Source: Sandarakinorhabdus sp. AAP62
GTDB taxonomy: Bacteria > Pseudomonadota > Alphaproteobacteria > Sphingomonadales > Sphingomonadaceae
Assembly (NCBI RefSeq): GCF_000331225.1
Contig: NZ_ANFY01000004.1
Span: forward strand, 124,001-188,000
Length of the DNA: 64,000 nucleotides
Direction: 5' to 3'
Shown piece after piece: positions 20,392 to 43,554 of the stretch. Made by a program: the position numbers and the translations under genes. Each line of letters begins with the position of its first letter. The first letter of the stretch is position 1. The notes below the pieces were generated by a model that ran no database searches, had not been told where the DNA came from, and worked only from the letters and a program-made list of their open reading frames with translations.

Positions 20392-21660
20392 ATGGGCCTG
20401 AAAAAGAAGCAGTTTTCAGAAGATGAAGTCGTCATTTTTGACGAGGCCCTGATCCAGAAGCGTGGCGAATACTGGCACTTCCGCATGTGGCTGGAACGCG
20501 AAAACAAGTACGCCCGTGTCAGCCTGCGCACTCGAAACCGTGACGCAGCCATCGCCAAAGGCAAAGAGTTCTTCCACCAAATCAAGGCCAACCAAACTGC
20601 TGGCAAGACCTACTTCTCTCTGACGGCGCAGCAAGGCGTCGACATGTATCTTGAGCAACGCAAGAAGGATGTGGATGCGGGCCTGATCGTCAAGGGCCGC
20701 TATGGCACGATCCGCATCCACCTCAATCACTGGCTGAACTTCATCGGTGCCAAGACCAAGCTCAAGGAGCTAGAGCGCACCGACTGCGAAAACTATTACC
20801 ACCGTCGGTCAGAAGAGAGCGGCAAGGGCGGCGCCAGCCTGTCCACGATCAAGAATGAGCAGAGCTCGATCAATGCCATGATGGAATGGCTCTACAAGCG
20901 CAACGAAGTCACCATCCGCGAATTCGACTTCAAAAAGCTGCCGCGCATTTACAACGACGAAGAAGCAATTCGTCGCGCCACGTTCACCCGAGATGAGGTC
21001 ACAAATCTACGCAAGGCGCTCTTCAATAAGGCAACCGAGGTGGCAAAAGACCTCTCCAACCGTCGCAACCTCACCCGGTTCATCACAGCATACTATCTTA
21101 TGGTGGCTTCGATCACCGGTTTGCGCACTGGTGAGCAACGGCAGCTAACGTGGGGTGACATACGCTTTGACACCGTGGTCAAGGGTGAAGGTGACGACGA
21201 AGAGGAAATCCCTGTCGTTGCTATCACCGTTCGTGCGGAAACATCCAAGGTCCGCAAGCGGCGTGTTTTCTACGTCCAAGATGACGAGCTGTTCGACAAC
21301 CTGCTCAAGGCCATGAAGCCCCTCATGGGGAAACAGCAGCTTTCAGACTGCCTCATTTTCAGCCGAGACGGCAAAACCATGATCAAGGAGCACGACATCC
21401 TTGAAACCTTCGCATGGGCCTTGGAGAAGGCAGAGGTAGACGATCACAAGAACCGCAATCTCGTTCCCTACAGCTTCCGACACTATTTCATCACCGACCG
21501 CATCAAGTCGGGCCTGAGCTACGGCAATGTAGCCAAAATGTGCGGCACCAGCGTCACGCAGATCGAACGGACCTACTTCCACATCGACACTGAGATCATG
21601 ATCTCGAATGCGCTAGCGGGCTATTTCGTGTCCAAGGAAGGCGTGATCGTCACGACCTGA
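20392..21660 (+). CDS. Tyrosine recombinase / island integrase
   Basis: 422 residues. An N-terminal arm-binding and core-binding region (QQGVDMYLEQRKKDVDAG near 82, SAM-like domain to about 190) is followed by the catalytic domain. Visible catalytic positions are Arg in TGLRTGEQRQL near 243, a YSFRHYFITDR box near 362 in which the usual first His of HxxR is Tyr, and the tyrosine in IERTYFHI near 394. It catalyses site-specific strand exchange, presumably of this island. Placement at the very edge of the low-GC segment fits an integrase next to its attachment site. Confidence 0.9.
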   Translation: MGLKKKQFSEDEVVIFDEALIQKRGEYWHFRMWLERENKYARVSLRTRNRDAAIAKGKEFFHQIKANQTAGKTYFSLTAQQGVDMYLEQRKKDVDAGLIVKGRYGTIRIHLNHWLNFIGAKTKLKELERTDCENYYHRRSEESGKGGASLSTIKNEQSSINAMMEWLYKRNEVTIREFDFKKLPRIYNDEEAIRRATFTRDEVTNLRKALFNKATEVAKDLSNRRNLTRFITAYYLMVASITGLRTGEQRQLTWGDIRFDTVVKGEGDDEEEIPVVAITVRAETSKVRKRRVFYVQDDELFDNLLKAMKPLMGKQQLSDCLIFSRDGKTMIKEHDILETFAWALEKAEVDDHKNRNLVPYSFRHYFITDRIKSGLSYGNVAKMCGTSVTQIERTYFHIDTEIMISNALAGYFVSKEGVIVTT

Positions 21661-27725: not shown

Positions 27726-28292
27726 ATGGCCAAGGCTAAGGTGCTCACCAAGGACGAGGTGCGTCGTGTGCTGCGCATTGCGGAAACAGGCAGTCACGGC
27801 CAGCGTGATAAGCTGGCACTTGCACTCAGCATCATGGGCGGCATGCGTGTCGGTGAAATTGCCGCACTTACCATTGGCGATGTGCGGGGCTTGGATGGCA
27901 GGGCGGTGGACATCATTCACCTCGCCAAACACCAAACCAAGGGCCATCGTTCACGGCGTGTGTTTGTCGGAGACGAGTTGCGCCGGATTTTGAGCATTTT
28001 CTTGGGACACTCAAAGGAATTGCCCGATACGGCGCCCCTGATCGCCAGCTCCCGAACGGGCAAGCATATGTGCACGGTCACGCTGTCGACGAGGCTCAAA
28101 TCCATTTACCGCGCAGCGGGCATAGACACGAGCAGTCACGCAGGGCGCCGCACATTCGCCACGCGGAAGAACGAGCTGGGCATTGGGATGGCCACGATCC
28201 AGCAGCTCATGGGGCATTCCTCGATCCAGACCACGGCGCTGTACTGTCATGTCTCGGATGAGCAGCTCAGGAACGCGGCCAACGCGGGTTGA
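27726..28292 (+). CDS. Short tyrosine recombinase (catalytic domain only)
   Basis: 188 residues, about half the usual length: the N-terminal SAM-like core-binding domain is absent. The catalytic set is complete: Arg in GMRVGEIAAL near 41, Lys region KGHRSRRVF, HAGRRTFAT (HxxR) near 140, GHSS near 160 and the Tyr in TTALYCHV near 171. It could be a functional small recombinase of island type or the 3' remnant of a larger one, but the start is well placed (GGCGGTTTCAATGG). It lies before the defence-like operon. Confidence 0.85.
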   Translation: MAKAKVLTKDEVRRVLRIAETGSHGQRDKLALALSIMGGMRVGEIAALTIGDVRGLDGRAVDIIHLAKHQTKGHRSRRVFVGDELRRILSIFLGHSKELPDTAPLIASSRTGKHMCTVTLSTRLKSIYRAAGIDTSSHAGRRTFATRKNELGIGMATIQQLMGHSSIQTTALYCHVSDEQLRNAANAG

Positions 28293-28413
28293 CACGCCAT
28301 TTCAGTCAAAAATTTTGCTTGCTCTACAAGGAGGCTGTCCAAACTGAAGCTTGATTGCTAGGCTGCTCGGCTACCCACTTGGCAGGGAGCGTAACGAGCA
28401 GGGGTTTTGGGGC

Positions 28414-31400
28414 ATGGCTGCGCTGGAAGCAGTGAAAAATGGCGCAATCGTCAAAGGCATTGTCCCGAATCAGTCCGTTGAGATCGTTTCCGTTGATTGG
28501 ATTGGCGATCAGGCTCTGAACGTAGTTTACCGCGTGCCGGGCGGCTCGGTAGCCGAGACCACTTTGTACCGAGATGACGAATTCCGGCTGACAGTCGAAG
28601 AAGGCGGGCAGGCGTGGTCCCTTGATGCCGATGGCTCTCTGCTGCGACTTGTGACCGAAGCCAATCGCATCAAGTTGGCTCATTACTTCGACCCGTACCT
28701 TGCCATCCACACTAGCCTCGTTGATCCGCTTCCGCACCAGATCACGGCGGTTTATGGCGAGATGCTGCCGCGACAGCCTTTGCGCTTCCTTCTCGCAGAT
28801 GACCCAGGCGCTGGCAAAACGATCATGGCTGGCCTGCTTATCAAAGAGCTGATTGCTCGCAGCGACCTTGAGCGATGCTTGATCGTAGCGCCGGGTAGCC
28901 TCGTCGAGCAGTGGCAAGATGAGCTCGGACAAAAGTTTGGGTTAGAGTTCGATATCCTCAGCCGGGACATGATCGAAACCTCCCGGTCTGGAAATGCCTT
29001 CAACGACCGTAATCGGCTCATCACTCGTTTGGACGTTCTGGCTCGCAACGAGGAGTTGCAGCAGAAGCTGATCAGCTCAAACGAGTGGGATTTGATCATC
29101 TGCGACGAAGCGCATCGCATGTCGGCGTCCTACTTCGGCGGCGATGTTAAGCTCACGAAGCGTTACCAGCTGGGGCAAAACCTCGGTCGCATTTGCCGCC
29201 ACTTGCTGCTCATGTCGGCAACTCCGCACAATGGGAAGGAAGAGGACTTCCAACTCTTCATGGCGCTGCTCGACGGAGATCGGTTCGAAGGGCGGTTCCG
29301 CGATGGCGTGCATTACGCCGATACTGAAGACATGATGCGGAGGCTGACCAAGGAAGAGCTGCTTAAATTTGACGGCACTCCCCTATTCCCTGAACGCAAA
29401 GCCTACACGGTCAAATACGACCTCTCGCCAGACGAGGCAGCTCTCTACACGGCAGTGACGGAGTACGTCCGCACCGAGATGAACCGTGTCCAACGGTTTG
29501 CAGAATCAGATGGCAAGAAGCGCAACAATGTCGGTTTCGCGCTTCAAATCTTGCAGCGTCGATTGGCATCCTCGCCTGCTGCGATTTACCAATCCCTCAA
29601 GCGCCGTCGCGAGCGTCTGGAGAATGAGATTGCAGAAGCGCGGCTGGCTAAGAAGGGGCTGACTTCGCCTATCGGCAAGGTTGAGGTGAACGACGACATC
29701 GTCGGTAACATCGACGAGTACGGTCAAGACGAGATCGACGCATTCGAGGACACGATCTCGGCGGGCGCGACCTCTGCCCAGACCATTGAGCAGCTGGAAC
29801 TTGAAGTCCAAACGCTTAAGGGCTTGGAGAGCATGGCCCTCAATGTCCTGCACTCCGGGCAAGATACGAAGTGGAGCCAGCTCAACCGCATTCTCGACGA
29901 CGAACTCATGGTCGATCCTGACGGGCATCGCCGCAAGCTCATCATCTTCACCGAGCCAAAGGACACACTCCACTACCTGCTTGAGAAGGTTCGCGCTCGG
30001 CTAGGAAAGCCTGAGGCTGTCGATGTGATCCACGGCGGCGTGACCCGCGAGGAACGCCGCAAGGTCGTCGAACGTTTCATGCAAGACAAGGACATGCTGG
30101 TCCTCATCGCCAACGACGCGGCTGGCGAAGGCGTTAACTTGCAACGTGGCCACCTGATGGTGAACTACGATCTTCCTTGGAACCCTAACAAGATAGAACA
30201 GAGGTTTGGTCGTATCCATCGTATCGGCCAGACCGAGGTTTGCCATCTCTGGAACCTTGTCGCAGCGGATACCCGCGAAGGTGAGGTCTACGCCCGCCTT
30301 CTCGAAAAGCTTGAAGCTGCTCGGGAGGCTCTAGGTGGTCGAGTTTACGACGTATTGGGCGAGCTGTTCGAAGGCATCGCCCTGAAAGACCTACTGTTTG
30401 AAGCGATCCAGTATGGTGAGCAGGAAGAGGTTAAGGCCCGTCTGTTCCAAGCCGTCGATGGTGCAGTTGATCAGGACCACTTGCTTCGGTTACTTGAGCG
30501 CAGAGCACTGACCAATGACACGATGCCGCCGTCGCGAGTGCAAGAGCTGCGGATCGAAATGGAGCGAGCTGAAGCCCAGCGCCTTCAGCCCCACCATATC
30601 CAAAGCTTCTTCGTGGAAGCATTCCAGCACCTCGGCGGTCAGATCAAGCGCCGCGAGGAAGGGCGTTGGGAGATTACCCACGTTCCCGTCAGCATCCGAG
30701 AACGCGACAGGCAGATTGGCACTGAAGCGCCGATCCAAAAGAAATATGAACGCATCTGCTTTGAAAAGTCGCGGATCAATCAGCAGCCCGTAGCAGCCTT
30801 CGTCTGTCCCGGACATCCATTGCTGGAAGCGGTCATAAGCCTCATTCGTGAGCAATACGATCACCTGATGAAGCGCGGCGCAGTGATGGTCGACGACACC
30901 GACCCATCAGAGGAAATTTCGGCGCTGTTCCTGCTTGAGCACAGCGTTCAAGATGGCCGTCCGACGGCAACCGGACATGCCCATATCGTTTCCGAGAAGC
31001 TGCAATTTGCCGACATCAACAAGCAGGGGACGGCATCTAACGCGGGTATCGCGCCGCACCTCAATCTGAGAGCGGCCAAACCAGAGGAAATTGCTCTCGT
31101 CGAAGACCTGCTCAATGAACCTTGGCTGCGCAACGATCTGGAAAAGACGGCAGTGCATTTCGCCACTGTCGAGCTGGCCCAGAAGCATGTTGCGGAGGTC
31201 AAGGCCCGCCGTCTGCCCGAGATCGACAAGGTTCAAACTGAGGTTCAGGCCCGCCTCAAGAAGGAAATCAACTACTGGGATGCGCGAGCATTCGAGCTGA
31301 AACAGGAAGAGCGTGCCGGTAAGAAGGTGCGGCTCAGCTGGCAGAATGCTGAGCGGAGAGCGGAAGAGTTGGCGGAAAGGCTCAAGCGGCGCATGGTACT

Positions 31401-31929
31401 GCTAGAGCAAGAGCGTTTTATCTCGTCTCAGCCGCCACGGATTCGTGGTGGGATGGTCGTTATTCCTGCCGGTCTGCTTGCGGAACGTTTAGCAGAGAAG
31501 GGCAATGACCCGTCTAAGGGCAACATGTTTGCCGAAGACCCGCAAGCTCGAAAGATCATCGAAACCCTTGCGATGAATGCCGTCATGGATGCCGAACGTG
31601 CGCTGGGCAATTCTCCGCTGGATGTGTCTGCGCAGAAGGTCGGCTACGATATCCAGTCACTTGATCCCAAGGCAGGTCACTTGCGTTTCATCGAGGTGAA
31701 AGGTCGCATTGATGGGGCAGACACCGTCATGATCACCCGACAAGAGGTGATCACATCGCTGCACGAGCCGGAAAAGTTCATCCTCGCCATTGTGCAGATC
31801 GATAACGGATTTGCGCGAGAGCCTCGCTATCTCCCGGGCGCTCTCGATACCCGCGAACCACCATTCGATCAGAACGCTATCCAGTTTAACATCAATCGCC
31901 TGCTTGAGCGGGCTAAGGCACCAGCATGA
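28414..31929 (+). CDS. RapA/SNF2-type helicase with C-terminal DUF3883 domain
   Basis: 1171 residues from the ATG at 28414; an in-frame extension to 28351 is possible. N-terminal helicase: Walker A region DDPGAGKTIMAGLLI near 129, DEAH near 229 (ICDEAHRM), SATPH, and the second RecA lobe with NDAAGEGVNLQRG and QRFGRIHRIGQ. The C-terminus (about 1040-1140) is a DUF3883 nuclease-like domain (GYDIQSLD, RFIEVKGRI) of the restriction-endonuclease kind. Such helicases (DrmD/DISARM-like and related) work in phage-defence operons. Its stop overlaps the methylase start by four bases (ATGA). Confidence 0.9.
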   Translation: MAALEAVKNGAIVKGIVPNQSVEIVSVDWIGDQALNVVYRVPGGSVAETTLYRDDEFRLTVEEGGQAWSLDADGSLLRLVTEANRIKLAHYFDPYLAIHTSLVDPLPHQITAVYGEMLPRQPLRFLLADDPGAGKTIMAGLLIKELIARSDLERCLIVAPGSLVEQWQDELGQKFGLEFDILSRDMIETSRSGNAFNDRNRLITRLDVLARNEELQQKLISSNEWDLIICDEAHRMSASYFGGDVKLTKRYQLGQNLGRICRHLLLMSATPHNGKEEDFQLFMALLDGDRFEGRFRDGVHYADTEDMMRRLTKEELLKFDGTPLFPERKAYTVKYDLSPDEAALYTAVTEYVRTEMNRVQRFAESDGKKRNNVGFALQILQRRLASSPAAIYQSLKRRRERLENEIAEARLAKKGLTSPIGKVEVNDDIVGNIDEYGQDEIDAFEDTISAGATSAQTIEQLELEVQTLKGLESMALNVLHSGQDTKWSQLNRILDDELMVDPDGHRRKLIIFTEPKDTLHYLLEKVRARLGKPEAVDVIHGGVTREERRKVVERFMQDKDMLVLIANDAAGEGVNLQRGHLMVNYDLPWNPNKIEQRFGRIHRIGQTEVCHLWNLVAADTREGEVYARLLEKLEAAREALGGRVYDVLGELFEGIALKDLLFEAIQYGEQEEVKARLFQAVDGAVDQDHLLRLLERRALTNDTMPPSRVQELRIEMERAEAQRLQPHHIQSFFVEAFQHLGGQIKRREEGRWEITHVPVSIRERDRQIGTEAPIQKKYERICFEKSRINQQPVAAFVCPGHPLLEAVISLIREQYDHLMKRGAVMVDDTDPSEEISALFLLEHSVQDGRPTATGHAHIVSEKLQFADINKQGTASNAGIAPHLNLRAAKPEEIALVEDLLNEPWLRNDLEKTAVHFATVELAQKHVAEVKARRLPEIDKVQTEVQARLKKEINYWDARAFELKQEERAGKKVRLSWQNAERRAEELAERLKRRMVLLEQERFISSQPPRIRGGMVVIPAGLLAERLAEKGNDPSKGNMFAEDPQARKIIETLAMNAVMDAERALGNSPLDVSAQKVGYDIQSLDPKAGHLRFIEVKGRIDGADTVMITRQEVITSLHEPEKFILAIVQIDNGFAREPRYLPGALDTREPPFDQNAIQFNINRLLERAKAPA

Positions 31930-34724
31930 CCACGACCTATAAAAAGAAGCTCATCGAAGTCGCGATTCCGCTGGAAGCCATCAACGCTGCATCAGCACGT
32001 GAGAAATCCATTCGCCACGGCCATCCTTCGACGCTGCATTTGTGGTGGGCGCGGCGTCCCTTGGCAGCTTGTCGGGCGGTGCTATTTGCGCAGTTGGTGG
32101 ATGACCCTTCTGCCCATCCTGAGCAGTTTCCGACGCATGAAGAACAGGAAGCCGAGCGTAAGCGGCTGTTCAAGATCATTGAGGACCTCGTAGTTTGGGA
32201 AAATTCCACCAACGAGGAGGTTTTGGAACGGGCCCGGGCTGAAATCCGCAAGAGCTGTGGTGGTGAATTGCCACCCGTGTATGACCCGTTTTCTGGGGGC
32301 TGCTCAATTCCACTCGAAGCGCAGCGGCTTGGCCTACCTGCTTATGGTTCTGACCTGAATCCCGTCGCCGTGATGATCGGGAAGGCGATGATCGAGATTC
32401 CGCCCAAGTTTAGAGACATGTCGCCGGTTCATCCTGGTGCGAAGGATAGACAGTTCTATCGTAACACCGAGGGGCTGGCGGAAGACATTAAATTCTATGG
32501 CGAGTGGATGCGTGAAAAAGCTTTTGACCGCATCGGGCATCTGTATCCGCCAGTTGACCTCGCTAGTGAATATGGTGGAGGTAAGGCGACAGTGATCGCT
32601 TGGATTTGGGCAAGGACAGTGCCTAGCCCTGACCCAGCATTCTCCGATGTGCAGGTGCCTATTGCATCCAGCTTTTTGCTCAGTTCAAAAGCTAAAAAAG
32701 AAGCGTGGATTGACCCGATTGTTGACCGACAAGCAAAATCAATTGTTTTCCGCATTCGTCAAGGCGGTACAAAGGCCGAAATTGCGGCGGCGAAGGAGGG
32801 GAATAAGGAAGGTCGCGGAGCCAATTTTCGCTGTTTGATGTCTGGCACTGCTATAACGCCAGATTACGTAAAGCGCATGGGACGAGATGGCCGGATGGGG
32901 CAAACGTTGCTTGCCATCGTAGCCGAGGGCAACCGTGGGCGAGCCTATATGGCACCTACTGCAGATCAGGAGGCAATTGCCTTTTCAGAGAAACCTAATT
33001 GGAAACCCGAAACAAGCCTTCCTGACGACCCTCGTAACTTTTGGACTGTGGATTATGGCTTGAAGACTTTTGGCGATCTTTTCACGGACAGGCAATTAGT
33101 AGCATTGAACACGTTTAGTGAACTGGTTCACGAAGTTCGCACGAAGATTGAAGCTGATGCTTTAGCAGCTGGTCGCTCCACAGATGTTGCACCGCTCCGG
33201 GACGGCGGGAAAGGTGCGAAAGCGTATGCTGAGGCAGTGAGCGTCTACTTAGCTTTTGCAGCAGACAAATGTACTGATTATTGGTCCTCGATATGCAGCT
33301 GGCATAGTTCAGGCGAAAAAATGCGTAACACCTTCGGTCGACAGGCCATTCCTATGACTTGGGATTATGCCGAAGCAAATCCATTTTGTTCGTCCTCTGG
33401 CAACTGGACTGCAATGAAGGATTGGGTCTGGAAGGTTGTTGCTGATTTCAATCCAGCACAAAACGGAACTGAGCGCCAAAGTGACGCTCAAACAGTCGAT
33501 TATCCCCCGGAGGTAGTAATATCTACTGATCCTCCATACTATGACAACATTGGCTACGCCGATCTTTCCGACTTCTTTTTTTGCTGGCTAAAGCCGTCTG
33601 TAAAATCCGTTTATCCAGAAATTTTCGGGAGCATCACAACTCCAAAATCGGAAGAGCTTGTGGCCACTCCATACCGCCACGGAAGCAAAGATTCTGCAGA
33701 AGGTTTCTTTCTTGATGGCATGAGAAAAGCCATAACCAATATGGCACGACATTCATCAGATAAATTTCCAGCTACAATTTATTATGCTTTCAAGCAAAGT
33801 GAGGTTGAGAAAGAGGGTATTAGCTCTACTGGTTGGGCCACATTTCTGCAGGCCGTCGTTGAAGCAGGATATGCAGTTGTAGGCACTTGGCCAATGCGCA
33901 CTGAAATGGCGAACAGGATGATCGCCTCGGGGACGAATGCTCTTGCTAATTCGGTTGTGCTAGTATGCCGGAAAAAGAAAGACACAGCGGAAATCGTCAC
34001 TCGCGCCGAATTTATCCGCGCTTTGAAACGTGAACTTCCGCCAGCTATTGCCGAACTTCAAGCAGTCAACATCGCCCCTGCAGACATGCCCCAATCTGCC
34101 ATTGGCCCCGGGATGGGTGTGTTCTCACGCTATAAGGCCGTTCTCGAATCTGATGACAGACCGATGACCGTGAAAACGGCCTTGCAGCTCATCAACCGAG
34201 AACTCATGGAATACCTTGACGGTGTGCAGGGCGAGTTTGACGCCGATACCCGTTTTGCCATCACGTGGTTTGAGCAGAACGGGTTGAATGCGGGCGATTA
34301 TGGCACAGCCAATAACATCGCCACGGCTCGCGGCATCTCCGTCGAGAGTGTGAAGCACGCAGGTATCATAGAAAGCTCTGCGGGTAAGGTTCGTATTCTG
34401 AATCGTGAGGAGCTGGACCCTGACTGGCATCCCAACGAAGACAAGCACATCACGATCTGGGAATGCCTTCAGTACCTCGTGCAGTACCATGAGAACCAAG
34501 GTCTGTCCGATGCCACAGCGATCCTTCTGCAGCAGATCGGCGATAAGGCCGAGGCGGTGAAAGACCTTGCCTACTGCCTTTACGACATCTGCGCGAACAA
34601 GCGGAAGGATGCCAAGGAAGCTACGGCATACAACGCTTTGATTGCGGATTGGACCGAGCTGAGCCGTCTCGCTGCAACGGTGCATGACACCCGCGGTCGT
34701 ACTCAGCTGCGCTTTGATGTTTGA
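31926..34724 (+). CDS. DUF1156 (COG1743-type) adenine-specific DNA methyltransferase
   Basis: 932 residues. The DUF1156 N-terminus is clear: IPLEAINAASAREKSIRHGH then STLHLWWARRPLAACRA. The SAM-binding motif DPFSGGCSIPLEA is near 119 and the catalytic DPPYYDNIGYAD (N6-adenine type) near 535. The separation of about 400 residues between the motifs is normal for this family. It would modify host DNA, protecting it from the operon's effector. Translationally coupled to the helicase; thirteen bases before the DUF499 gene. Base composition in 32.5-34 kb is more AT-rich than its neighbours, as often seen for target-recognition regions. Confidence 0.92.
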   Translation: MTTTYKKKLIEVAIPLEAINAASAREKSIRHGHPSTLHLWWARRPLAACRAVLFAQLVDDPSAHPEQFPTHEEQEAERKRLFKIIEDLVVWENSTNEEVLERARAEIRKSCGGELPPVYDPFSGGCSIPLEAQRLGLPAYGSDLNPVAVMIGKAMIEIPPKFRDMSPVHPGAKDRQFYRNTEGLAEDIKFYGEWMREKAFDRIGHLYPPVDLASEYGGGKATVIAWIWARTVPSPDPAFSDVQVPIASSFLLSSKAKKEAWIDPIVDRQAKSIVFRIRQGGTKAEIAAAKEGNKEGRGANFRCLMSGTAITPDYVKRMGRDGRMGQTLLAIVAEGNRGRAYMAPTADQEAIAFSEKPNWKPETSLPDDPRNFWTVDYGLKTFGDLFTDRQLVALNTFSELVHEVRTKIEADALAAGRSTDVAPLRDGGKGAKAYAEAVSVYLAFAADKCTDYWSSICSWHSSGEKMRNTFGRQAIPMTWDYAEANPFCSSSGNWTAMKDWVWKVVADFNPAQNGTERQSDAQTVDYPPEVVISTDPPYYDNIGYADLSDFFFCWLKPSVKSVYPEIFGSITTPKSEELVATPYRHGSKDSAEGFFLDGMRKAITNMARHSSDKFPATIYYAFKQSEVEKEGISSTGWATFLQAVVEAGYAVVGTWPMRTEMANRMIASGTNALANSVVLVCRKKKDTAEIVTRAEFIRALKRELPPAIAELQAVNIAPADMPQSAIGPGMGVFSRYKAVLESDDRPMTVKTALQLINRELMEYLDGVQGEFDADTRFAITWFEQNGLNAGDYGTANNIATARGISVESVKHAGIIESSAGKVRILNREELDPDWHPNEDKHITIWECLQYLVQYHENQGLSDATAILLQQIGDKAEAVKDLAYCLYDICANKRKDAKEATAYNALIADWTELSRLAATVHDTRGRTQLRFDV

Positions 34725-34737
34725 GGGATAGGGAAGC

Positions 34738-37700
34738 ATGGCCAAGAGCACCCGCCAGTACGTCTTTGAAGGCATGGAACTGCTGCCGGAGGCGCTGATT
34801 CCTTTCGTTGAGAAGCGCCTAGAGAATTCCATTAAGGGTCATTGGCAGCTTGAGGTCGTCCAGCGCATTCAAGGCCTGCGGCCCAACTCAAGTGGCGCTG
34901 TCGGTTGGGATCAGCAGGGCTTGCTGAAGACCATGATGGTGTTCTGGAAGGAAGCGTTTTCGGCGGTTCTCGGCCATCCTGAGCGGTCCTATGTGTCTGA
35001 ACTTCTTGATGTGCGGAACAAGCTCTCGCACAACGAGACGTTCACTTACGACGATGCCGAGCGTGCACTCGATTCCATGCGTCGCCTCATGGAGGCAATC
35101 AGCGCAGGGGAAACTGCTGATCAACTCAGCAAAATGCGCGACACAATCCTGCGGACCAAGTTTTCCGAGCTTCAGCGCAATGAAGAACGGCGCAAGACCC
35201 AGCGTTATGACATTGCGGTGGATACGGTGGCTGGATTGCTGCCGTGGCGAGAGGTCGTCGAGCCACATCAGGACGTTGCGACAGGCGAATTCCAGCAGGC
35301 TGAGTTTGCCGCTGACCTTGCCAAGGTGCACCACGGCAGTGCGCCGTCTGAGTACCGCGATCCGAAGGAGTTCTTCTCGCGCACCTACCTGACCGAAGGC
35401 CTGAGTAGCCTGCTCGTCGGTGCTGCCAAGCGTTTGTCAGGCGGCGGCGGTGATCCGGTTGTCGAACTGCAAACCAACTTTGGCGGCGGCAAGACCCACT
35501 CGATGTTGGCACTGTATCACATGGCCAGTGGCATCAACGTCGATGACCTGTCCGGCTTGGATCAGCTCCTCCGGAACGAAGGCCTGACCGTTCCGTCCAA
35601 GATCAATCGGGCAGTGCTGGTTGGCACCTCGCGTGGTCCTCAAGACGTGATCCATCTCGAAGGTGGCCGCACGATCAATACCACTTGGGGTGAATTGGCG
35701 TACCAGCTCGGTGGCATCGAAGCCTTCGACATGATTGCCGAGCAGGATGCACGTGGCATCGCTCCGGGCTCTAACCAGCTTGAGGCAATCTTCCGCAAGT
35801 TTTCCCCGTCGCTGATCCTGATCGACGAATGGGTTGCTTACCTGCGCCAGATCTATCGAGTTGAAGGCCTCCCGTCTGGCTCGTTCGATGCAAACCTCAG
35901 CTTCGTGCAGTCGCTGACTGAGGCGGTGAAGGCCAGTCCCGGAACGCTGCTGGTGGCATCGCTTCCCGCCTCTCAGATCGAAGTGGGCGGCGAGGGCGGT
36001 CAAGAGGCCTTGGCTCGCCTCAAACAGACGTTCAGCCGCGTGGAATCTTCGTGGCGTCCAGCTTCGCAGGAAGAGAGCTACGAGATCGTTCGTCGGCGTC
36101 TGTTCAAGGAAGTACCGGGTGACAAGTTCCACCACCGGGACAATACGCTGAAGCAGTTCGCCAAGCTGTACCGCGATAGCTCGGACGATTTCCCGCAAGG
36201 GTGCTCGGACGAAGATTATCGGCGTAAGCTTGAGAAGGCCTACCCCATCCATCCCGAGCTGTTCGACCAGTTGTACATGAGCTGGGGCTCGCTCGAAAAA
36301 TTCCAGAAAACTCGCGGTGTTCTGCGGCTCATGGCACAGGTGATCCACGAGCTATGGATCGGCAACGACCCCTCAGTTATGATCATGCCCGGCAGCGTCG
36401 CGATTAGCTCCGCCCGCGTTGAGCCCGAACTGCTACATTATCTCGACACTAGCTGGCAGGCGATCATCGCGGGCGACGTAGATGGCCAAGCCTCGACGCC
36501 GTACCGGATCGATCAGGCCGCACCGAACCTTGCGAAGTGCTCGGCAACCCGCCGCGTGGCCCGTGCTGTGTTCATGGGAACCGCGCCTACCGCCGGGCAA
36601 GAAAACAAGGGTGTAGACGACAAGCGCATCAACCTTGGCGTGGTGCAGCCGGGTGAAAAGCCTGCCATCTTCAGTGACGCCCTGCGCCGCCTGACTAACC
36701 AGGCTAAGTTCATGCACAGCGACCTTGGCCGGTATTGGTATTCCATGTCGGCCAGTCTCAATCGGATTGCTGCTGACAAGGCAGGTCAGATTGAAGAAGC
36801 TTTGGTCCTCGTTGAGATCGACAAGGCGCTTGCATCCTATATCAATGGCTTGGCTGATCGTGGCGACTTTGATGCGATACAGGTTGCCCCAAACAGCTCA
36901 GCTGATGTGCCGGATGAAGCAGGTGGGGTTCGCGCTGTGGTGCTTGGCGTGGCCCATCCTCATTCGGGTCGTGAGGGGTCCGCCGCACAGACAACCGCCA
37001 AGGATATCCTGACCACGAGAGGCAGCACGCCTCGCGTCTACCGAAATATGCTCGTTTTCCTTGCCGCTGAAGAGCGGCAGTTGGACAATCTCAAGCTTGC
37101 GATGCGCTCTTCTCTGGCGTGGTCGGAGATCGTGCGGGAGTCTGATCGCTACAATCTCATCCCAAGCGATGCTGCTCGCGCCAAGGCTAAGCTTTCGGAA
37201 GCAACTGACACCCTGAAGACCCGTCTCAAAGAGGCGTGGTGCTATCTGATCTATCCGTCGCAGGAGAGCGCCCAAGCGGACATCGAGTGGAACTCTGCCA
37301 AGGTTTCTGCGCAAGATGGATTGCTATCGAGGGCTAGTAAGAAGCTCGCTAGCGATGAAGGCTTAATGCCCGAGTTAGGTCCGTCGCGGCTCGACCGGGA
37401 GCTTCAAAAGTACATCTGGAACGGCAAGCCACACCTTGGGCTGGCCGACCTATGGGAGTACCTCAACCGCTACATTTACCTTCCGAGGGTCAAGAACCGC
37501 GCGGTGCTAACCAAGGCGGTCCAAACGGCGGTTAGTCAGATGGTGCCGGGGCCTTTTGCCTATGCAGAACGGTGGAATGAAACCGCAGGCTCCTATGATG
37601 GCCTTGTCATCTCCAGTGCGCCAAACGCTCAGATCGTAATTGACCGGGAGTCTGTCATCATCAAACCCGATGCAGCAGAGGCTGCTCGGGCGAAAGAGAT

Positions 37701-38040
37701 ACAGGATCGCGGTAATGTTGGTGGTGGTGACGGAACCGGACCGTTGCCGGGTCAGGGGCCGGTAGACACTGGTGGGGGTATAACGCCTCCGCAGCCTGTC
37801 CCGGAAAGCAGTCCGAAACGCTTCACGGGCACAGTGATGATCTCTCCCGAGCGACCGGCACGGGACATTCATCAGATTGTCGAAGCCATCGTCGAGCAAC
37901 TGACCACAATCCAAGGTTGTGATGTATCTCTCAGGCTCGAAATCGATGCTGAGGCGCCAAATGGGTTTGACCGTGCAAAAGTGCGCACTTTGCTGGAAAA
38001 TGCGACAACGCTCGGGTTCATCGACAAAAGCATTCGGTGA
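34738..38040 (+). CDS. DUF499 family AAA+ ATPase
   Basis: 1100 residues. The P-loop is NFGGGKTHSM near 247 (GGGKT form typical of DUF499) and the Walker B LILIDEWVAYL near 360. The N-terminal 120 residues are helical (Swt1/HEPN-like appearance, RNKLSHNETF near 96). A Gly/Pro-rich linker (GGGDGTGPLPGQGP and following, about 995-1025) precedes a C-terminal domain. DUF499 ATPases are regular partners of DUF1156 methylases and SNF2 helicases in prokaryotic defence loci. It probably acts as the NTP-driven sensor or loader of the complex; this role is inferred. Confidence 0.9.
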   Translation: MAKSTRQYVFEGMELLPEALIPFVEKRLENSIKGHWQLEVVQRIQGLRPNSSGAVGWDQQGLLKTMMVFWKEAFSAVLGHPERSYVSELLDVRNKLSHNETFTYDDAERALDSMRRLMEAISAGETADQLSKMRDTILRTKFSELQRNEERRKTQRYDIAVDTVAGLLPWREVVEPHQDVATGEFQQAEFAADLAKVHHGSAPSEYRDPKEFFSRTYLTEGLSSLLVGAAKRLSGGGGDPVVELQTNFGGGKTHSMLALYHMASGINVDDLSGLDQLLRNEGLTVPSKINRAVLVGTSRGPQDVIHLEGGRTINTTWGELAYQLGGIEAFDMIAEQDARGIAPGSNQLEAIFRKFSPSLILIDEWVAYLRQIYRVEGLPSGSFDANLSFVQSLTEAVKASPGTLLVASLPASQIEVGGEGGQEALARLKQTFSRVESSWRPASQEESYEIVRRRLFKEVPGDKFHHRDNTLKQFAKLYRDSSDDFPQGCSDEDYRRKLEKAYPIHPELFDQLYMSWGSLEKFQKTRGVLRLMAQVIHELWIGNDPSVMIMPGSVAISSARVEPELLHYLDTSWQAIIAGDVDGQASTPYRIDQAAPNLAKCSATRRVARAVFMGTAPTAGQENKGVDDKRINLGVVQPGEKPAIFSDALRRLTNQAKFMHSDLGRYWYSMSASLNRIAADKAGQIEEALVLVEIDKALASYINGLADRGDFDAIQVAPNSSADVPDEAGGVRAVVLGVAHPHSGREGSAAQTTAKDILTTRGSTPRVYRNMLVFLAAEERQLDNLKLAMRSSLAWSEIVRESDRYNLIPSDAARAKAKLSEATDTLKTRLKEAWCYLIYPSQESAQADIEWNSAKVSAQDGLLSRASKKLASDEGLMPELGPSRLDRELQKYIWNGKPHLGLADLWEYLNRYIYLPRVKNRAVLTKAVQTAVSQMVPGPFAYAERWNETAGSYDGLVISSAPNAQIVIDRESVIIKPDAAEAARAKEIQDRGNVGGGDGTGPLPGQGPVDTGGGITPPQPVPESSPKRFTGTVMISPERPARDIHQIVEAIVEQLTTIQGCDVSLRLEIDAEAPNGFDRAKVRTLLENATTLGFIDKSIR

Positions 38041-38050
38041 TGTTCGATAG

Positions 38051-39022
38051 ATGAAGGTTTTGCTCGACACCAACGTTTGGCGTTATCTCGCTGATTCTGG
38101 GCGGCAGAGCCTGCTGAATTCAGAAGCCAAGCGAGGCGGTTATAAGATTACCATATGTCCTGCGATCGTAAACGAGACGCTCAGGATCGGAGATGCAGGT
38201 CTAAGAAGAAGGGTAATTGAGCTTCAAACACGGCGTTGCTGGCATCGATTGATGCCAGATTCATATCTCGAGTTAGAAGACATGAAGCGCGAGATACAGA
38301 AGGTCCATCCTGATTGGATGTTGTCTAAGCCTGACAATTCTGGGTTTCGGAAGCTGTCGTACAATTGGTCGCGTGCTACAGGAGGTTGGTGGTCTTACGT
38401 CCGTGAGAACGTCGATATAAGTGCCTCGCGATTAAGGCCAAGAGATGATCTGGTTATCAACCAGGTGCGAGATCAATCTCGACAAATGCGCGATGCCGTC
38501 CTGCAGGCCAAAAAGCCTATGGTTGGCAATTGGCTCTCGAACCTTGAGGGTTCATGGGATGTCAATGGAGCGACCGTGCGGTTCGAAGGCTGGCGGGTAT
38601 ACGCTTACACTATTTGGAAGAACATGTTTTTGAGCGATGTAACGACCCGCCAGTGGATGGGATGCCACATCGATATCGACCGTATGCTTCATGGGAATCC
38701 AAGTGATTTCTTCAACTTCTGGCATCACGAAGCCACTGCAATCGCACTTCCCCGTGAGTGGCTTCGCGCCGCAATTTATGCCATGCAAGCAGATCGGAAG
38801 GTAACCGATGGCAATCCTCTGGACGCGACAATTGGCGTGCACCTCATGGATGTCGATCTGGTCGTTTCAGCCGATAGAAACTTCGTATCGATGATCAAAC
38901 GCTGTCACGAGGAAGCGCCGTTCGTGACAGCTGATGCATTCTTAATCGGGGGTGGTGACGCGGGAATAGATCAGCTGTTTGAACTCTTATCAGAGGGTGC
39001 CAGAGCTAAGGTTTCTCACTGA
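38051..39022 (+). CDS. PIN-domain nuclease-like protein
   Basis: 323 residues, longer than toxin PIN proteins. The N-terminus MKVLLDTNVWRYLAD carries the first PIN Asp (D6), NETLRIGD a conserved-type Glu (E42), and the C-terminal LDATIGVHLMDVDLVVSADRNF the last acidic cluster. About 200 residues between them (Trp-rich, e.g. RATGGWWSYV) form an insert not seen in VapC. Ten bases after the DUF499 stop, so part of the same operon; it is the likely RNA- or DNA-cleaving effector. No antitoxin gene is visible. Confidence 0.75.
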   Translation: MKVLLDTNVWRYLADSGRQSLLNSEAKRGGYKITICPAIVNETLRIGDAGLRRRVIELQTRRCWHRLMPDSYLELEDMKREIQKVHPDWMLSKPDNSGFRKLSYNWSRATGGWWSYVRENVDISASRLRPRDDLVINQVRDQSRQMRDAVLQAKKPMVGNWLSNLEGSWDVNGATVRFEGWRVYAYTIWKNMFLSDVTTRQWMGCHIDIDRMLHGNPSDFFNFWHHEATAIALPREWLRAAIYAMQADRKVTDGNPLDATIGVHLMDVDLVVSADRNFVSMIKRCHEEAPFVTADAFLIGGGDAGIDQLFELLSEGARAKVSH

Positions 39023-39239: not shown

Positions 39240-40580
39240 TTAGAACAACTCGTCCCAATAGCGCCCGCTGTCGCCATCATCGAAGTCTTGAGAATGGCGC
39301 AGCCGGTTGAAGGTCGTGTCCTTGTACCGTTCCAGCGTGGCCATCTGACCCGACTTGAAAATCTCGTCGATCACCTCGACCGCAGAACCCTCGGGGCGAC
39401 CATACTGAAACTTGTTGTCGATGGTCGCGATGTCGAAAAAGCGGTTTGCCGTTGCAATCGCCCAGCACAATGCACCGAGGTTGTGGTGTGCCAGCAGGAC
39501 TTCGCTGAGCCGGTCACGGAAGAAGCTGCTCGTCAGCGAGCCGGTGACGCAATAGTCGCCCATGACCATCTTGTTGCCAATCGGGCTCGGCCACGGCCAC
39601 GGCAGCGGACTACCAAGAAACCGCTTGTGCTCGGGAACATCGACAGCGCCCATGACCATCTTTCCCGGCTCGAACGTGGGCAGCGTCATCATCTGATTGA
39701 AGCGCAGGTTCCGCCACGGCGTGCTCGTATCGTACGAGATACGAATGTCGTAACCCGTGCGCTTCTTGAGAGTGCGCTGCAACGCCGTCAGCAGCACAGC
39801 GGTGTCGAGCTCATTCGTCCCCAGCACATGAATGTGGGTCGTGTGTTCCAGTTCACCATCATGCCACATGATGAGCAGGCGGCGACAAAGCTCGTAGAAA
39901 TTGTGCCGCAGGCGGCCCGCAAACGCCCATCCCTCGAACTTGTACTGCTTCACAGTTTTGTACCAGATATCGGCTTCAGCAGGCGTGTTCCCTTGCAGCA
40001 CATTCAGGAAGCGAACCTTTCCCGGCGTGCGATTGCGATGGAAATAGCGAAGGTGCTGCATCGTGGCAGACAGGCATTCGTCGGTCGACTTGAAACGGTA
40101 CTTCGTAGGGTTCTTCACGACAGGGCCTGTCGGAACGTCCAGCGTCATCGAGATGTCGGCATTGGCCTCGATCCAGTCCAGAACCTTCTTGCGGTCACTG
40201 TCATCCTCAATCGGGAACTTATCGCTGGCAATCTGGTAGCCGCCGCTATCCGCGATCACCAAGGTGTTTTCGCGATCACGCTGCGAGATGATGCACGGCT
40301 TCTTCTGCTTCATCGCCTGACCCGCCGAGGTCATGACGTGCGAAATTCGGAACAGCTTGTTGGCAGGATCGAGGAAGTTGAGATCGGCTGCCGTCACTCC
40401 TTTGGGAAGAGCACGGCCCCAGTACGTTGCATTGATGATCCCATCATAGATCATCTGTGCGTGGGAAGGGCTCACAGATGGCACGTAGATGGCCTGATCT
40501 TTGGGCGTGATGTCGTTTTCAATGTGGTTTGCGTACCGGGGGAACGGCCATGCGGCATCGTTATGGATTTCACGGTCCAT
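39240..40580 (-). CDS. TGT-superfamily transglycosylase, DpdA-like (DNA 7-deazaguanine insertion)
   Basis: 446 residues that align by eye along the whole tRNA-guanine transglycosylase core. VIADSGGYQIAS (Asp111) matches the TGT DSGGFQ box; VRFLNVLQGNTP near 189 matches FGIIQG; FEGWAFAGR near 215 matches GYAVGG; HIHVLGTNE near 249 matches LMGVG; ISYDTSTP (Asp284) sits at the catalytic nucleophile; AHHNLGALCWAIATANRFF matches the terminal helix. The CxCxxC zinc ligands of tRNA enzymes are missing. With a non-TGT-like N-terminus this fits the DNA-modifying DpdA branch, which inserts preQ0 into DNA, better than Tgt. GGAG lies eight bases before the ATG. No que genes are adjacent, so precursor would come from the chromosome. 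Confidence 0.8.
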   Translation of the reverse strand: MDREIHNDAAWPFPRYANHIENDITPKDQAIYVPSVSPSHAQMIYDGIINATYWGRALPKGVTAADLNFLDPANKLFRISHVMTSAGQAMKQKKPCIISQRDRENTLVIADSGGYQIASDKFPIEDDSDRKKVLDWIEANADISMTLDVPTGPVVKNPTKYRFKSTDECLSATMQHLRYFHRNRTPGKVRFLNVLQGNTPAEADIWYKTVKQYKFEGWAFAGRLRHNFYELCRRLLIMWHDGELEHTTHIHVLGTNELDTAVLLTALQRTLKKRTGYDIRISYDTSTPWRNLRFNQMMTLPTFEPGKMVMGAVDVPEHKRFLGSPLPWPWPSPIGNKMVMGDYCVTGSLTSSFFRDRLSEVLLAHHNLGALCWAIATANRFFDIATIDNKFQYGRPEGSAVEVIDEIFKSGQMATLERYKDTTFNRLRHSQDFDDGDSGRYWDELF

Positions 40581-40621
40581 TTTAGGTCTCCAGAATTTGG
40601 GTAAATCAAGTTTTCAGGTTA

Positions 40622-40652
40622 TGTTGGGATGCCGTCTGGCAGCATCCCAACA
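40622..40652. repeat. Perfect 11-bp inverted repeat between the two minus-strand genes
   Basis: TGTTGGGATGC (40622-40632) pairs with GCATCCCAACA (40642-40652) over a nine-base loop. There is no T-run on either side, so it is not a canonical terminator. It may be a partial terminator, RNA-processing stem or protein-binding site setting the ratio of the upstream 602-residue protein to the DpdA-like protein. Confidence 0.6.
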
Positions 40653-40666
40653 GGGTCAGTTCACGC

Positions 40667-42475
40667 CTAGATGAGGCAGGAAAGCACGGTCAGGCAACGA
40701 TCCTTGAGCCCGCCCTTTTCATTCACAGTCGGCAGGTAGATTTCGTACTCACCGAACTTGTCCGACCAGCGCACCATCAGCAGGCCGTTGGGGTCAGCCT
40801 TCATGACAAAGCTGTCAGTGTTCTGTTCCGCCAGAAGCTTGAACAGGTCGGCAATGTCGCGGGGCCGAAGTGCCAGCGTGACCATCGGCTGCTCTTCTGC
40901 CTCAAGCGGCACACGATACGACTTATGCTTGGCGTGCTCGAAGCTCAGGCTGAGCCCGTTGTAGGACAGCGTGATGGGCAGGAAGGTCTTGTCCTCGTCC
41001 TTCTTCGCCTTCTGCCAATTTCCGATGTAAGCTTCATAGATGCTCTGCACCGCCGTCTTGCGCAGCTCAGTGGTGAACTTGGCATTGAAGCTTTCGATGC
41101 AGACAGGCTGGTGCTTCTCCTTGGACGCAATGGTCCAGCAGAAGCGAGGCTCCTTTTCGCACTGCTCCACTGCCTTCCCATTGGGCACGATCTGCCAGAT
41201 CAGAGGCGCATCCTCAGTCCCGCCAATCGCCGTCATGCCGAACATGATGCGATCCCCGATGCTGCTGACCTGCTTGGCGAGATCCTTACCCGTCTTGGTG
41301 ACAGTATCGTCTTCGCGGCGCTCCGTGGGCAGCATCAGGAACTGACCGGACGGGAACGTGCCGATGTCGATTTCGGGCTTCGGCCGGGCAATGATCACCG
41401 CCGAGGTATCGGTGTAGCGGGCGGAAACCTGCACGAAGGTGCCACGTTCGTCATCGCGCAGCACGTAAGTGCGAGCCACCTTGAGATGTTCACCAGAGCT
41501 GGTGCCGTCGGCAGTGTAGATGCTCTTCTTACCGTCGCGCACCATCGTGCCGATTTCGCAGACCTTGGCCGCAAACTCAGCAAACGGGTTGAGGCCGCCA
41601 AGCACGTCAGTGTCAACCTTAAGCACCAGCGACTTGGCTTCGTTGTCAGATGCTTCCAGTTCGCCGTAGATTGCGACCTGATCATCGACCTTGCGACCAA
41701 TCAGGAACACATAGCCATCGCGAGCGAACTTGGGTGCGTAGCTCACGTTGGCAACGGGAGCGGCATGAGAGATTGCCTTGGTGATAGCCGAGACCTTCTC
41801 GTTGCGCTTGGCATCCGCTTCGGCGTCGCTGCCCCCCGACTTGGCATCATTATTGTTGGCGCTGTTGCTGCTTTCGGGAGCATTGCCACGGGCAATGTCG
41901 AGCGCAGCCTCAAATCCGCCTGCCTTCTTGAGCAGCGCAACAATTGCGTCTTCGGTCATGCTGTCGAGCTGGTCACGGCGCTGGTCAATGTATTCAAGCA
42001 CCTTTGCATAACGCGAAACATTCGAGGCATCGGAAGCGCGGGCAAACTCGAACACGAACTTGACCACAATCGTGAACGGGCTTGCGCCGTCACGGGCCTC
42101 GGCCTTGACCTTCGCGGCCTTGTCCCAGTCTTCCTTGGAATAGCCGAGATAGTCCTTGAGCTTGGCGAATTCCTCAGCAGAAACGTCCTTGCCGTCGCTC
42201 GCGAGATAGGCAGCAACACGGGCTTCGAGATCGGGAAGGGCGTTATTGAAGCGGTCAACTTCGGCGTTGTAGTCGTCCACCTGCGAGGCAAACCATGCAC
42301 GGGCAAACTCCTCAGCCTGCTCAGAGGCCGCAAAGTACCAGAGCAGGTAGCAGTTTGCGGCAGACTTCATTGCCGCAGACTTATAGTTTTTGTAGGCTTC
42401 CTGAGCCTTGGTGACAAAGGCGCCGAGTTTGGCAGCGTCAATGTTGGTTTCGAGGGTCTCGTTATACGTCAGCAT
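40667..42475 (-). CDS. Unrecognised 602-residue protein with sliding-clamp-like C-terminus
   Basis: The start at 42475 is preferred to 42481 because GGAG lies nine bases from it but only three from the other. The N-terminal 190 residues are helical (AKLGAFVTKAQEAYKNYKSA onward). A Ser/Asn/Asp-rich linker (PESSNSANNNDAKSGGSDAE) is near 198-217. The rest is beta-rich. The last 100 residues, with LALRPRDIADLFKLLAEQNT then FVMKADPNGLLMVR and YEIYLPT, follow the pattern of the last domain of bacterial DNA polymerase beta clamps. First of two leftward genes, upstream of the DpdA-like gene, so probably a functional partner. The clamp resemblance is by eye only. Confidence 0.75.
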   Translation of the reverse strand: MLTYNETLETNIDAAKLGAFVTKAQEAYKNYKSAAMKSAANCYLLWYFAASEQAEEFARAWFASQVDDYNAEVDRFNNALPDLEARVAAYLASDGKDVSAEEFAKLKDYLGYSKEDWDKAAKVKAEARDGASPFTIVVKFVFEFARASDASNVSRYAKVLEYIDQRRDQLDSMTEDAIVALLKKAGGFEAALDIARGNAPESSNSANNNDAKSGGSDAEADAKRNEKVSAITKAISHAAPVANVSYAPKFARDGYVFLIGRKVDDQVAIYGELEASDNEAKSLVLKVDTDVLGGLNPFAEFAAKVCEIGTMVRDGKKSIYTADGTSSGEHLKVARTYVLRDDERGTFVQVSARYTDTSAVIIARPKPEIDIGTFPSGQFLMLPTERREDDTVTKTGKDLAKQVSSIGDRIMFGMTAIGGTEDAPLIWQIVPNGKAVEQCEKEPRFCWTIASKEKHQPVCIESFNAKFTTELRKTAVQSIYEAYIGNWQKAKKDEDKTFLPITLSYNGLSLSFEHAKHKSYRVPLEAEEQPMVTLALRPRDIADLFKLLAEQNTDSFVMKADPNGLLMVRWSDKFGEYEIYLPTVNEKGGLKDRCLTVLSCLI

Positions 42476-42481
42476 TATCAT

Positions 42482-42597: not shown

Positions 42598-43554
42598 ATG
42601 CGCCAACGAGGCTGGGAGGCTGATTTGATCAGATATGCGAATTATCAGGTGTATTTTCAGCACTGGCCGCCGGAACAGCATGGTGGGCAGGTTGCCGAGC
42701 AGCGTAAGGGGCACAAGGATATCGACCCCAAAGAACCATGGCTCTCAAGTGTTTACTACCATTGGTGGCGATACCTAAGCGCCAGCGAAACCTGCCGGGG
42801 CATTTGCGACACGGCTAGAACCGAAGATGGCCGCCGGAGTGCAAAGGTGCTGAACAGCGCCTACCCGGATTTTGGCAATGTGTTCGAGGGCAATTTCTGG
42901 TCGTGGTGGTGGGATCGGGGCTGGGCGTTGTTCTGTGAGCCGCAATCATACAGTATTCGAAAACTGGATCGAGAAGGAATGAGGCGCTGGTCGTCTGATC
43001 TCAATGCACCTGATCGCTTGATCGTCTCGCTTGCGGTCAATGGTGACCATCAGCGCACAGTCGACGAGATAAAAGCCTTGTTGGATGAGCTACCTCGGGG
43101 CAACCGTTCGGCACGGGGCAAGAAGCTCAGTGCGGCATTGTATCAACCAAGCGGAAAGCCTGATATCCCTGCATTGCAAAGATATTTCAAGGTTTGGGAC
43201 AAGCGCAGGACTGATCCGGGCTTAGAGATTTGCGAGATCACCTACAAATGCGGCATCGAAAAGACTTACATGCCCACGGACGACAACTGGCGAAAACAGG
43301 CACGCAACGACTTTTACCGCCTTTTCAACAAGGCAGATGCCATCATGAAAAATGCAGCCTACGGCGTTTTTCCAGTGACTGAAGAGCTGTCGATGGATGC
43401 CATCGCTAAAATCCGGGGCGATCAGATGGCGTTGTCCCGAGATCGCCGTAGCGAGATCGACGCACGTCTATTTCCGAACCCGTTTGGCCAGCTCCAAGAG
43501 TTTTGGGCTGGGGCGCAAATCGAAAAAGGTTCGATTGCCCAGCTTAAGCCCTGA
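42598..43554 (+). CDS. Hypothetical protein, Trp-rich N-terminal half
   Basis: 318 residues, not recognised. Residues 17-110 are unusually rich in Trp and Tyr (PWLSSVYYHWWRYLSAS, GNFWSWWWDRGWALF), a pattern seen in unnamed proteins of alphaproteobacterial plasmids and islands. The C-terminal half is charged and helical. The ribosome-binding site before the ATG is weak. Divergent from the clamp-like gene and 53 bases ahead of the H-NS-like gene. No function proposed. Confidence 0.7.
   Translation: MRQRGWEADLIRYANYQVYFQHWPPEQHGGQVAEQRKGHKDIDPKEPWLSSVYYHWWRYLSASETCRGICDTARTEDGRRSAKVLNSAYPDFGNVFEGNFWSWWWDRGWALFCEPQSYSIRKLDREGMRRWSSDLNAPDRLIVSLAVNGDHQRTVDEIKALLDELPRGNRSARGKKLSAALYQPSGKPDIPALQRYFKVWDKRRTDPGLEICEITYKCGIEKTYMPTDDNWRKQARNDFYRLFNKADAIMKNAAYGVFPVTEELSMDAIAKIRGDQMALSRDRRSEIDARLFPNPFGQLQEFWAGAQIEKGSIAQLKP

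What the first reader, a model, noticed from the sequence alone, without database searches (positions are those of the whole stretch)
39240..40580. DpdA-like transglycosylase: possible 7-deazaguanine DNA modification on an island
Seen: colinear match to the TGT core (DSGGYQ with Asp111, LQG, FAGR, VLGTNE, SYDTS with Asp284) and absence of the CxCxxC zinc motif. Known: the TGT paralogue DpdA inserts preQ0 in DNA in the dpd defence clusters and in some phages. Inference: this island enzyme modifies DNA, not tRNA. None of the other dpd genes, nor queC/D/E/F, are adjacent, so it would be an uncommon minimal arrangement using host preQ0.
Basis: partly seen in the sequence, partly recalled or inferred. 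Interest (0 to 1): 0.82.

Follow-up and report, generated by a model that had tools for sequence, protein, structure and literature searches.

The report
Island DNA-modifying enzyme with sliding-clamp-like partner
A 24-kb mobile island that also carries an antiphage system encodes an uncharacterised relative of the enzymes that swap guanine in DNA for a 7-deazaguanine base, and it is paired with a protein that looks like a DNA sliding clamp, a pairing also seen in many large phages.

Summary
The 446-aa gene at 39240-40580 (-) encodes a TGT-fold protein. Foldseek of a confident model hits TGT (7e-8) and the DNA preQ0 insertase DpdA (6e-5) best. All catalytic positions are invariant or nearly so in 58 relatives, the zinc motif is absent, and dN/dS is about 0.1. 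It matches no Pfam, PADLOC or PHROGs model and is not canonical DpdA. Its nearest characterised relative is DpdA2 of Vibrio phage nt-1 (profile E 2.7e-10). It belongs to a large unannotated family, found on at least 587 viral contigs; in phages it often lies near FolE or QueE. The bacterial members are rare and form mostly one clade on mobile islands, with a small recombinase and often restriction or defence cargo (here Hma).

New here: the enzyme is linked to a sliding-clamp-like protein. In most bacterial loci a 530-630 aa partner sits directly next to it; in the window this is ORF604. Its low-confidence model hits only PCNA/beta clamps among the top matches. Phage relatives have a 245-aa clamp-like gene upstream in 73 of 80 loci, and one bacterial locus has an RFC-type clamp loader there. 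Best reading: a clamp-tethered DNA transglycosylase using host preQ0. Chemistry and clamp coupling are untested.

The parts
39240..40580 (-). DpdA2-like transglycosylase, 446 aa, TGT fold, D111/D148/Q196/D284 conserved, no zinc motif
40667..42481 (-). ORF604, conserved partner gene directly upstream of the transglycosylase on the same strand (86 nt gap); helical N-terminal region and a sliding-clamp-like (PCNA/beta-clamp) C-terminal region
   Evidence: homologues adjacent in other loci; Foldseek hits PCNA/clamps on a low-confidence model; phage clamp-like profile ranks partners 1,2,3,5,6 of 198 proteins; purifying selection
42598..43554 (+). ORF318, unknown; homologue beside the partner gene in N. 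arvoryzae (31% identity)
27726..28292 (+). minimal tyrosine recombinase, 188 aa; same family near dpdA-like genes in Azospirillum, N. arvoryzae, G099 and G417
28351..31929 (+). HmaA helicase (cargo: Hma / DUF499-centred BREX-related defence system)
   Evidence: PADLOC HmaA 1602 bits
31926..34724 (+). HmaB DNA adenine methyltransferase (DUF1156)
   Evidence: PADLOC HmaB 1258 bits; Pfam
34738..38040 (+). HmaC ATPase (DUF499) with N-terminal Swt1-like HEPN domain
   Evidence: PADLOC HmaC; Pfam
20392..21660 (+). full-length tyrosine integrase, 422 aa, at the left edge of the island
   Evidence: Pfam PF00589
20185..44394 (.). genomic island: lower G+C (about 0.50-0.59 against 0.62-0.69 in the flanks), absent in three congeners; in G1021 window 20184 and 44395 lie about 97 bp apart

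Best explanation
The gene encodes a DNA guanine transglycosylase of a DpdA2-related family. It probably uses D284 as nucleophile and D111 as general acid/base to exchange guanine in DNA for a 7-deazaguanine (most likely host-made preQ0). It works with its neighbour ORF604, a sliding-clamp-like protein that holds it on DNA or couples it to replication, so that the mobile island's DNA, or host DNA during or after replication, becomes modified and is protected from restriction, including systems carried by rival elements. Shown by computation: fold, conserved active site, loss of the tRNA-TGT zinc motif, purifying selection, mobile-island context, linkage to clamp-like genes in phages and bacterial elements. 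Inferred: DNA as substrate, preQ0 as base, tethering by the clamp, and the protective purpose.
For: Model of the enzyme: best PDB matches are TGT 2ash (7e-8), 4gg9 (1.3e-7) and DpdA 7ui4 (6.2e-5). Profile match to DpdA2 of nt-1, E 2.7e-10, with all motifs in register; nt-1 DNA contains dPreQ0 (PMC6884629). Catalytic positions invariant, 0/58 zinc motifs. Phage relatives: FolE within 6 kb in at least 36 of 80 loci and QueE in at least 8; QueF/YhhQ/FolE in Vibrio phage 2.275; QueE in PA5oct. Host QueC and a separate Tgt. Clamp link: ORF604 model hits PCNA and phage clamps in two libraries; ~245-aa gene upstream in 73/80 phage loci, one member matching PHROG 'DNA polymerase processivity factor' at 6.7e-5; partner of G655 aligns with that phage family over 165 columns, E 6.8e-4; ranking control; RFC/gp44-like clamp loader directly upstream of the enzyme gene in G099, RFC5 2.3e-18; 9g dpdA also lies beside a clamp gene.
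Against: No biochemical data for this family. The ORF604 model has mean pLDDT of only 42, so the clamp fold is suggestive rather than shown; no clamp resemblance was found by sequence for the partners of G205 and Azospirillum, and none to host DnaN. No preQ0-pathway gene is on the island, so dependence on host preQ0 is assumed. Foldseek TM-scores to TGT are moderate (0.42-0.50). In phages the clamp-like gene also sits next to the DNA polymerase, so the association with the enzyme may in part be mere placement in a replication gene block.
Confidence: 0.6

Rival explanations
1. A DNA transglycosylase as above, but acting alone; ORF604 is a neighbour with another role in the island's replication or maintenance, and the clamp resemblance is fortuitous or unrelated to modification.
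For: ORF604 model confidence is low. In the window the two genes are separated by 86 nt with a hairpin-like inverted repeat. Partners in G205 and Azospirillum are in opposite orientation to the enzyme gene and show no detectable clamp similarity. 9g DpdA modifies DNA on its own in E. coli (PMC6884629).
Against: A partner of similar size adjoins the enzyme gene in nearly every bacterial locus, with overlapping genes in three. The clamp signal recurs in three diverged partner lineages and in phages, plus a clamp loader in G099.
Confidence: 0.22
2. An RNA-modifying transglycosylase that exchanges a base in tRNA or another RNA.
For: TGT itself is the best structural match, and RNA is the ancestral substrate of the superfamily.
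Against: No zinc motif. Host already has a canonical Tgt. Closest characterised relative is DpdA2, whose phage has dPreQ0 in DNA (PMC6884629). Phage relatives lie among DNA polymerase and clamp-like genes.
Confidence: 0.08
3. An offensive or sensing factor of the defence island: a glycosylase or transglycosylase that edits or damages invading phage DNA, perhaps as an accessory of the Hma system beside it.
For: Island carries Hma; related islands carry restriction genes.
Against: No Hma genes were recognised beside the enzyme/partner pair in the other loci examined (only selected large ORFs were scanned). Hma is described as a self-contained three-gene system (PMC8565338, PMC12839542). The enzyme lies on the opposite strand from Hma. 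Phages carry the same family, which argues for self-modification.
Confidence: 0.08

Closest known systems
DpdA2 of Vibrio phage nt-1 (YP_008125322; PMC6884629)
   Same: Profile-level homology over the catalytic core with DSGG, FDE/LD.P, QG, LG and SYDSST motifs in register; no zinc motif; present in large phages with preQ0 genes
   Different: No confident pairwise match: a single-sequence comparison gave only a weak 50-column hit. The window family has different flanks, bacterial mobile members and clamp-like neighbours; nt-1 DpdA2 sits between FolE and QueC
DpdA of dpd clusters (PDB 7ui4) and 9g-type phage DpdA
   Same: TGT fold; transglycosylation of DNA is the likely shared chemistry; 9g dpdA also lies beside a clamp gene
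   Different: No PADLOC DpdA hit; 9g profile E 0.21; no dpdB-K genes in the window
Bacterial tRNA-guanine transglycosylase (Tgt; PDB 2ash, 4gg9)
   Same: Fold and catalytic aspartates
   Different: No CxCxxC zinc site; host has its own Tgt; about 13-16% identity in the structural alignment
PCNA / DnaN / gp45 sliding clamps
   Same: ORF604 C-terminal region is predicted as repeated beta-alpha-beta-beta-beta units; Foldseek hits are clamps in two libraries; clamp-like C-terminal ending
   Different: Extra N-terminal helical region of about 230 aa; no significant sequence match to DnaN or to any Pfam clamp model
Hma / Type-1 DUF499 BREX-related system
   Same: HmaA, HmaB and HmaC all present at 28351-38040
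   Different: The transglycosylase is not part of the described system

Membership tests
TGT/DpdA transglycosylase superfamily | TGT-type TIM-barrel fold | tested here: met
   Model pLDDT 85.6; best PDB matches TGT and DpdA
TGT/DpdA transglycosylase superfamily | two catalytic aspartates and the base-recognition Asp/Gln in register | tested here: met
   D111, D148, D284 58/58; Q196 52/58; aligned with E. coli Tgt motifs
tRNA-guanine transglycosylase (Tgt) | CxCxxC zinc-binding motif | tested here: not met
   0 of 58
DpdA of bacterial dpd systems | match to DpdA models | tested here: not met
   No PADLOC hit at E<=0.1
DpdA of bacterial dpd systems | neighbouring dpdB-dpdK genes | tested here: not met
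   The helicase matches HmaA far better than DpdE; no other Dpd match shown among the ten genes scanned
9g-type phage DpdA | sequence-profile similarity | tested here: not met
   hhalign E 0.21
DpdA2 | profile similarity to nt-1 DpdA2 | tested here: met
   hhalign E 2.7e-10, probability 97
DpdA2 | direct (BLAST-level) similarity to nt-1 DpdA2 | tested here: not met
   nt-1 not among tblastn hits of the window protein or of the Vibrio 2.275 member
DpdA2 / DpdA | 7-deazaguanine in DNA dependent on the enzyme | not testable with these tools
   Needs LC-MS/MS
Sliding clamp (ORF604) | clamp fold | tested here: inconclusive
   Top Foldseek hits in two libraries are clamps, but model pLDDT is 42
Sliding clamp (ORF604) | sequence match to a clamp family | tested here: inconclusive
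   Weak C-terminal match to the phage clamp-like family (E 0.01-0.02; G655 partner 6.8e-4), none to DnaN
Hma defence system | HmaA, HmaB and HmaC genes in order | tested here: met
   PADLOC

The most novel reading that the evidence does not exclude
A clamp-tethered DNA base-exchange module: a DpdA2-like transglycosylase with its own sliding-clamp-like partner (in one locus also an RFC-type clamp loader), shared by large phages and by bacterial defence-carrying islands, that writes 7-deazaguanine onto DNA processively or at the replication fork.
Probability: 0.35. Interest if true: 0.82.

Novelty: new variant of a known kind. Interest (0 to 1): 0.64.

Why it matters
7-Deazaguanine DNA modification is described for dpd defence clusters and for some phages. 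If right, this adds a large, mostly unannotated family (at least 587 viral contigs) and shows the same chemistry carried by bacterial mobile islands that also hold restriction and defence genes. The link to clamp-like genes gives a testable answer to how such enzymes reach long stretches of duplex DNA: by riding a clamp or the replisome. It would also mean that DNA modification in many large phages is being missed.

Tried and rejected
Single-sequence searches against Pfam, PADLOC, PHROGs and PDB gave nothing usable; only profiles and structure resolved the family. The small recombinase was first read as one family; Pfam showed two kinds, minimal tyrosine recombinases and serine resolvases. Weak profile hits of ORF604 near NAD-glutamate dehydrogenase genes lay beside chromosomal GDH with at most a marginal PAS-domain match and were set aside. 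A second weak PF02768 hit in G1027 has no transglycosylase or partner nearby. No flanking att-type direct repeat was found for the island; the boundary comes from the empty site instead. ORF604 has no relative in the viral collection or on plasmids by direct search. Membership in the Hma system was considered and rejected.

Full report
OBSERVATION. The ORF at 39240-40580 (-), 446 aa, is real and is under purifying selection: against the 98%-identical copy in Novosphingobium arvoryzae dN/dS is 0.011/0.105, and 30 of 41 changes are at third codon positions. Single-sequence searches are nearly blank: no Pfam, PADLOC or PHROGs match and only a marginal archaeosine-TGT match.

WHAT THE ENZYME IS. 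tblastn found relatives in large phages of Pseudomonas (PA5oct and kin), Vibrio (2.275.O) and Sinorhizobium (Phosso) and on an Azospirillum plasmid. In a 58-sequence alignment D111, S112, G113, G114, Q116, D148, P150, H251 and D284 are invariant, Q196 is Q in 52 of 58, and no member has CxCxxC. AF2 gave a confident model (pLDDT 85.6, pTM 0.86). Its best PDB matches are TGT 2ash (7e-8), TGT 4gg9 (1.3e-7) and the DNA preQ0 insertase DpdA 7ui4 (6.2e-5); the next is a generic TIM barrel at 1e-3. Profile-profile comparison ranks DpdA2 of phage nt-1 first (2.7e-10), then Tgt (3.7e-4); 9g DpdA is not matched (0.21). So this is a TGT-superfamily enzyme of a family nearest DpdA2. Hutinet et al. (PMC6884629) report dPreQ0 in nt-1 DNA, and that 9g DpdA alone puts preQ0 into E. 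coli plasmid DNA using host precursor.

SUBSTRATE. Phage relatives have FolE within 6 kb in at least 36 of 80 loci and QueE in at least 8. Vibrio phage 2.275 has QueF, a YhhQ-like transporter, a queuosine-biosynthesis protein and FolE just downstream, and PA5oct has QueE. The window's host has QueC and its own canonical Tgt elsewhere, so preQ0 should be available and the tRNA job is already filled. DNA as substrate is an inference.

THE ISLAND. The window holds a 24-kb lower-G+C island, about 20185-44394. In congener G1021 the two flanks lie about 97 bp apart; in G135 and G248 the right flank joins window 18775 or 18771. The island begins with a full integrase (20392-21660) and carries HmaA, HmaB and HmaC (28351-38040), a defence system also described as DUF499-centred BREX-related. 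Related loci in other genera carry a type ISP enzyme (G183), an MmeI-like enzyme (G099) or a ResIII/Eco57I pair (N. arvoryzae). A small recombinase lies near the gene in most loci: a minimal tyrosine recombinase (window, Azospirillum, N. arvoryzae contig 12, G099, G417) or a serine resolvase (N. arvoryzae contig 1, G196, G183, G205, G655, G631). N. arvoryzae has several copies, some broken or truncated. Bacterial carriers are rare: 6 of 298 genomes in the order, 4 of 398 in the phylum sample, 2 of 385 in the class sample, the window's genome counted in each. Nine of ten bacterial members form one clade (support 0.94); G205 groups weakly with phage Phosso.

THE PARTNER. Directly next to the enzyme gene in nearly every bacterial locus is a 530-630 aa protein (ORF604 in the window), usually upstream on the same strand and overlapping it in three loci. 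The AF2 model of ORF604 is poor (pLDDT 42), but its last 120 residues form beta-alpha-beta-beta-beta repeats. Foldseek against PDB gives 186 matches below 1e-3, and all 50 listed are PCNA or beta clamps. Against viral predictions the named matches are likewise mostly clamps. In phages a ~245-aa gene lies upstream of the enzyme gene in 73 of 80 loci, often with a 0-5 nt gap. All 30 members scanned are phrog_12062, and the Vibrio 2.275 member also matches 'DNA polymerase processivity factor' at 6.7e-5. A profile of this phage family aligns with the G655 partner over 165 columns (E 6.8e-4) and with ORF604 over the clamp-like C-terminal end (about 0.01-0.02). As a control, among 198 proteins from all these loci it ranks five partners 1st, 2nd, 3rd, 5th and 6th. 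In G099 the gene directly upstream of the enzyme gene is an RFC/gp44-type clamp loader (RFC5 2.3e-18). In phage 9g, dpdA also adjoins the clamp gene. The clamp reading of ORF604 is therefore well motivated but not proven.

MECHANISM. Shown: fold, active site, selection, context. Inferred: base exchange in DNA with host preQ0, tethering by the clamp-like partner, and protection of the island or host from restriction.

VERDICT. New variant of a known kind: DpdA-type chemistry is known; the family, its place on mobile islands and its link to clamp-like genes were not found in the papers searched, which cover only open-licence literature.

Noticed in passing
L025:8897-9598 (-) (genome G099): RFC/gp44-type clamp-loader ATPase directly upstream of the transglycosylase gene; closer to eukaryotic/archaeal RFC and T4 gp44 than to bacterial DnaX.
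   Followed up: partly
L017:9599-10660 and 58 of 80 IMG/VR loci: A ~350-aa protein with weak glycosyltransferase similarity recurs near the phage transglycosylase gene; could point to further decoration of the base.
   Followed up: no
L021 (N. arvoryzae contig 12) 1-10200: Two successive units with transglycosylase gene or remnant at one end and the 188-aa tyrosine recombinase at the other, with different genes between, as if cargo is swapped between the two.
   Followed up: partly
window 40600-40660 (-): Inverted repeat GTTGGGATGC...GCATCCCAAC between ORF604 and the transglycosylase gene, without a T-run; possible attenuator or processing site.
   Followed up: no
window 38051-39022 (+): 323-aa protein with no family match; its start (MKVLLDTNVW...) recalls PIN-domain nucleases.
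   Followed up: no
window 24737-25426 (+): 229-aa protein, 96% identical in N. arvoryzae, with a sub-threshold Rep ORF2/G2P match; may be an island replication protein.
   Followed up: no
L024, L026, L027 serine resolvase: The resolvase is 94-97% identical between genera whose transglycosylases are only about 52% identical, which suggests mosaic exchange.
   Followed up: no
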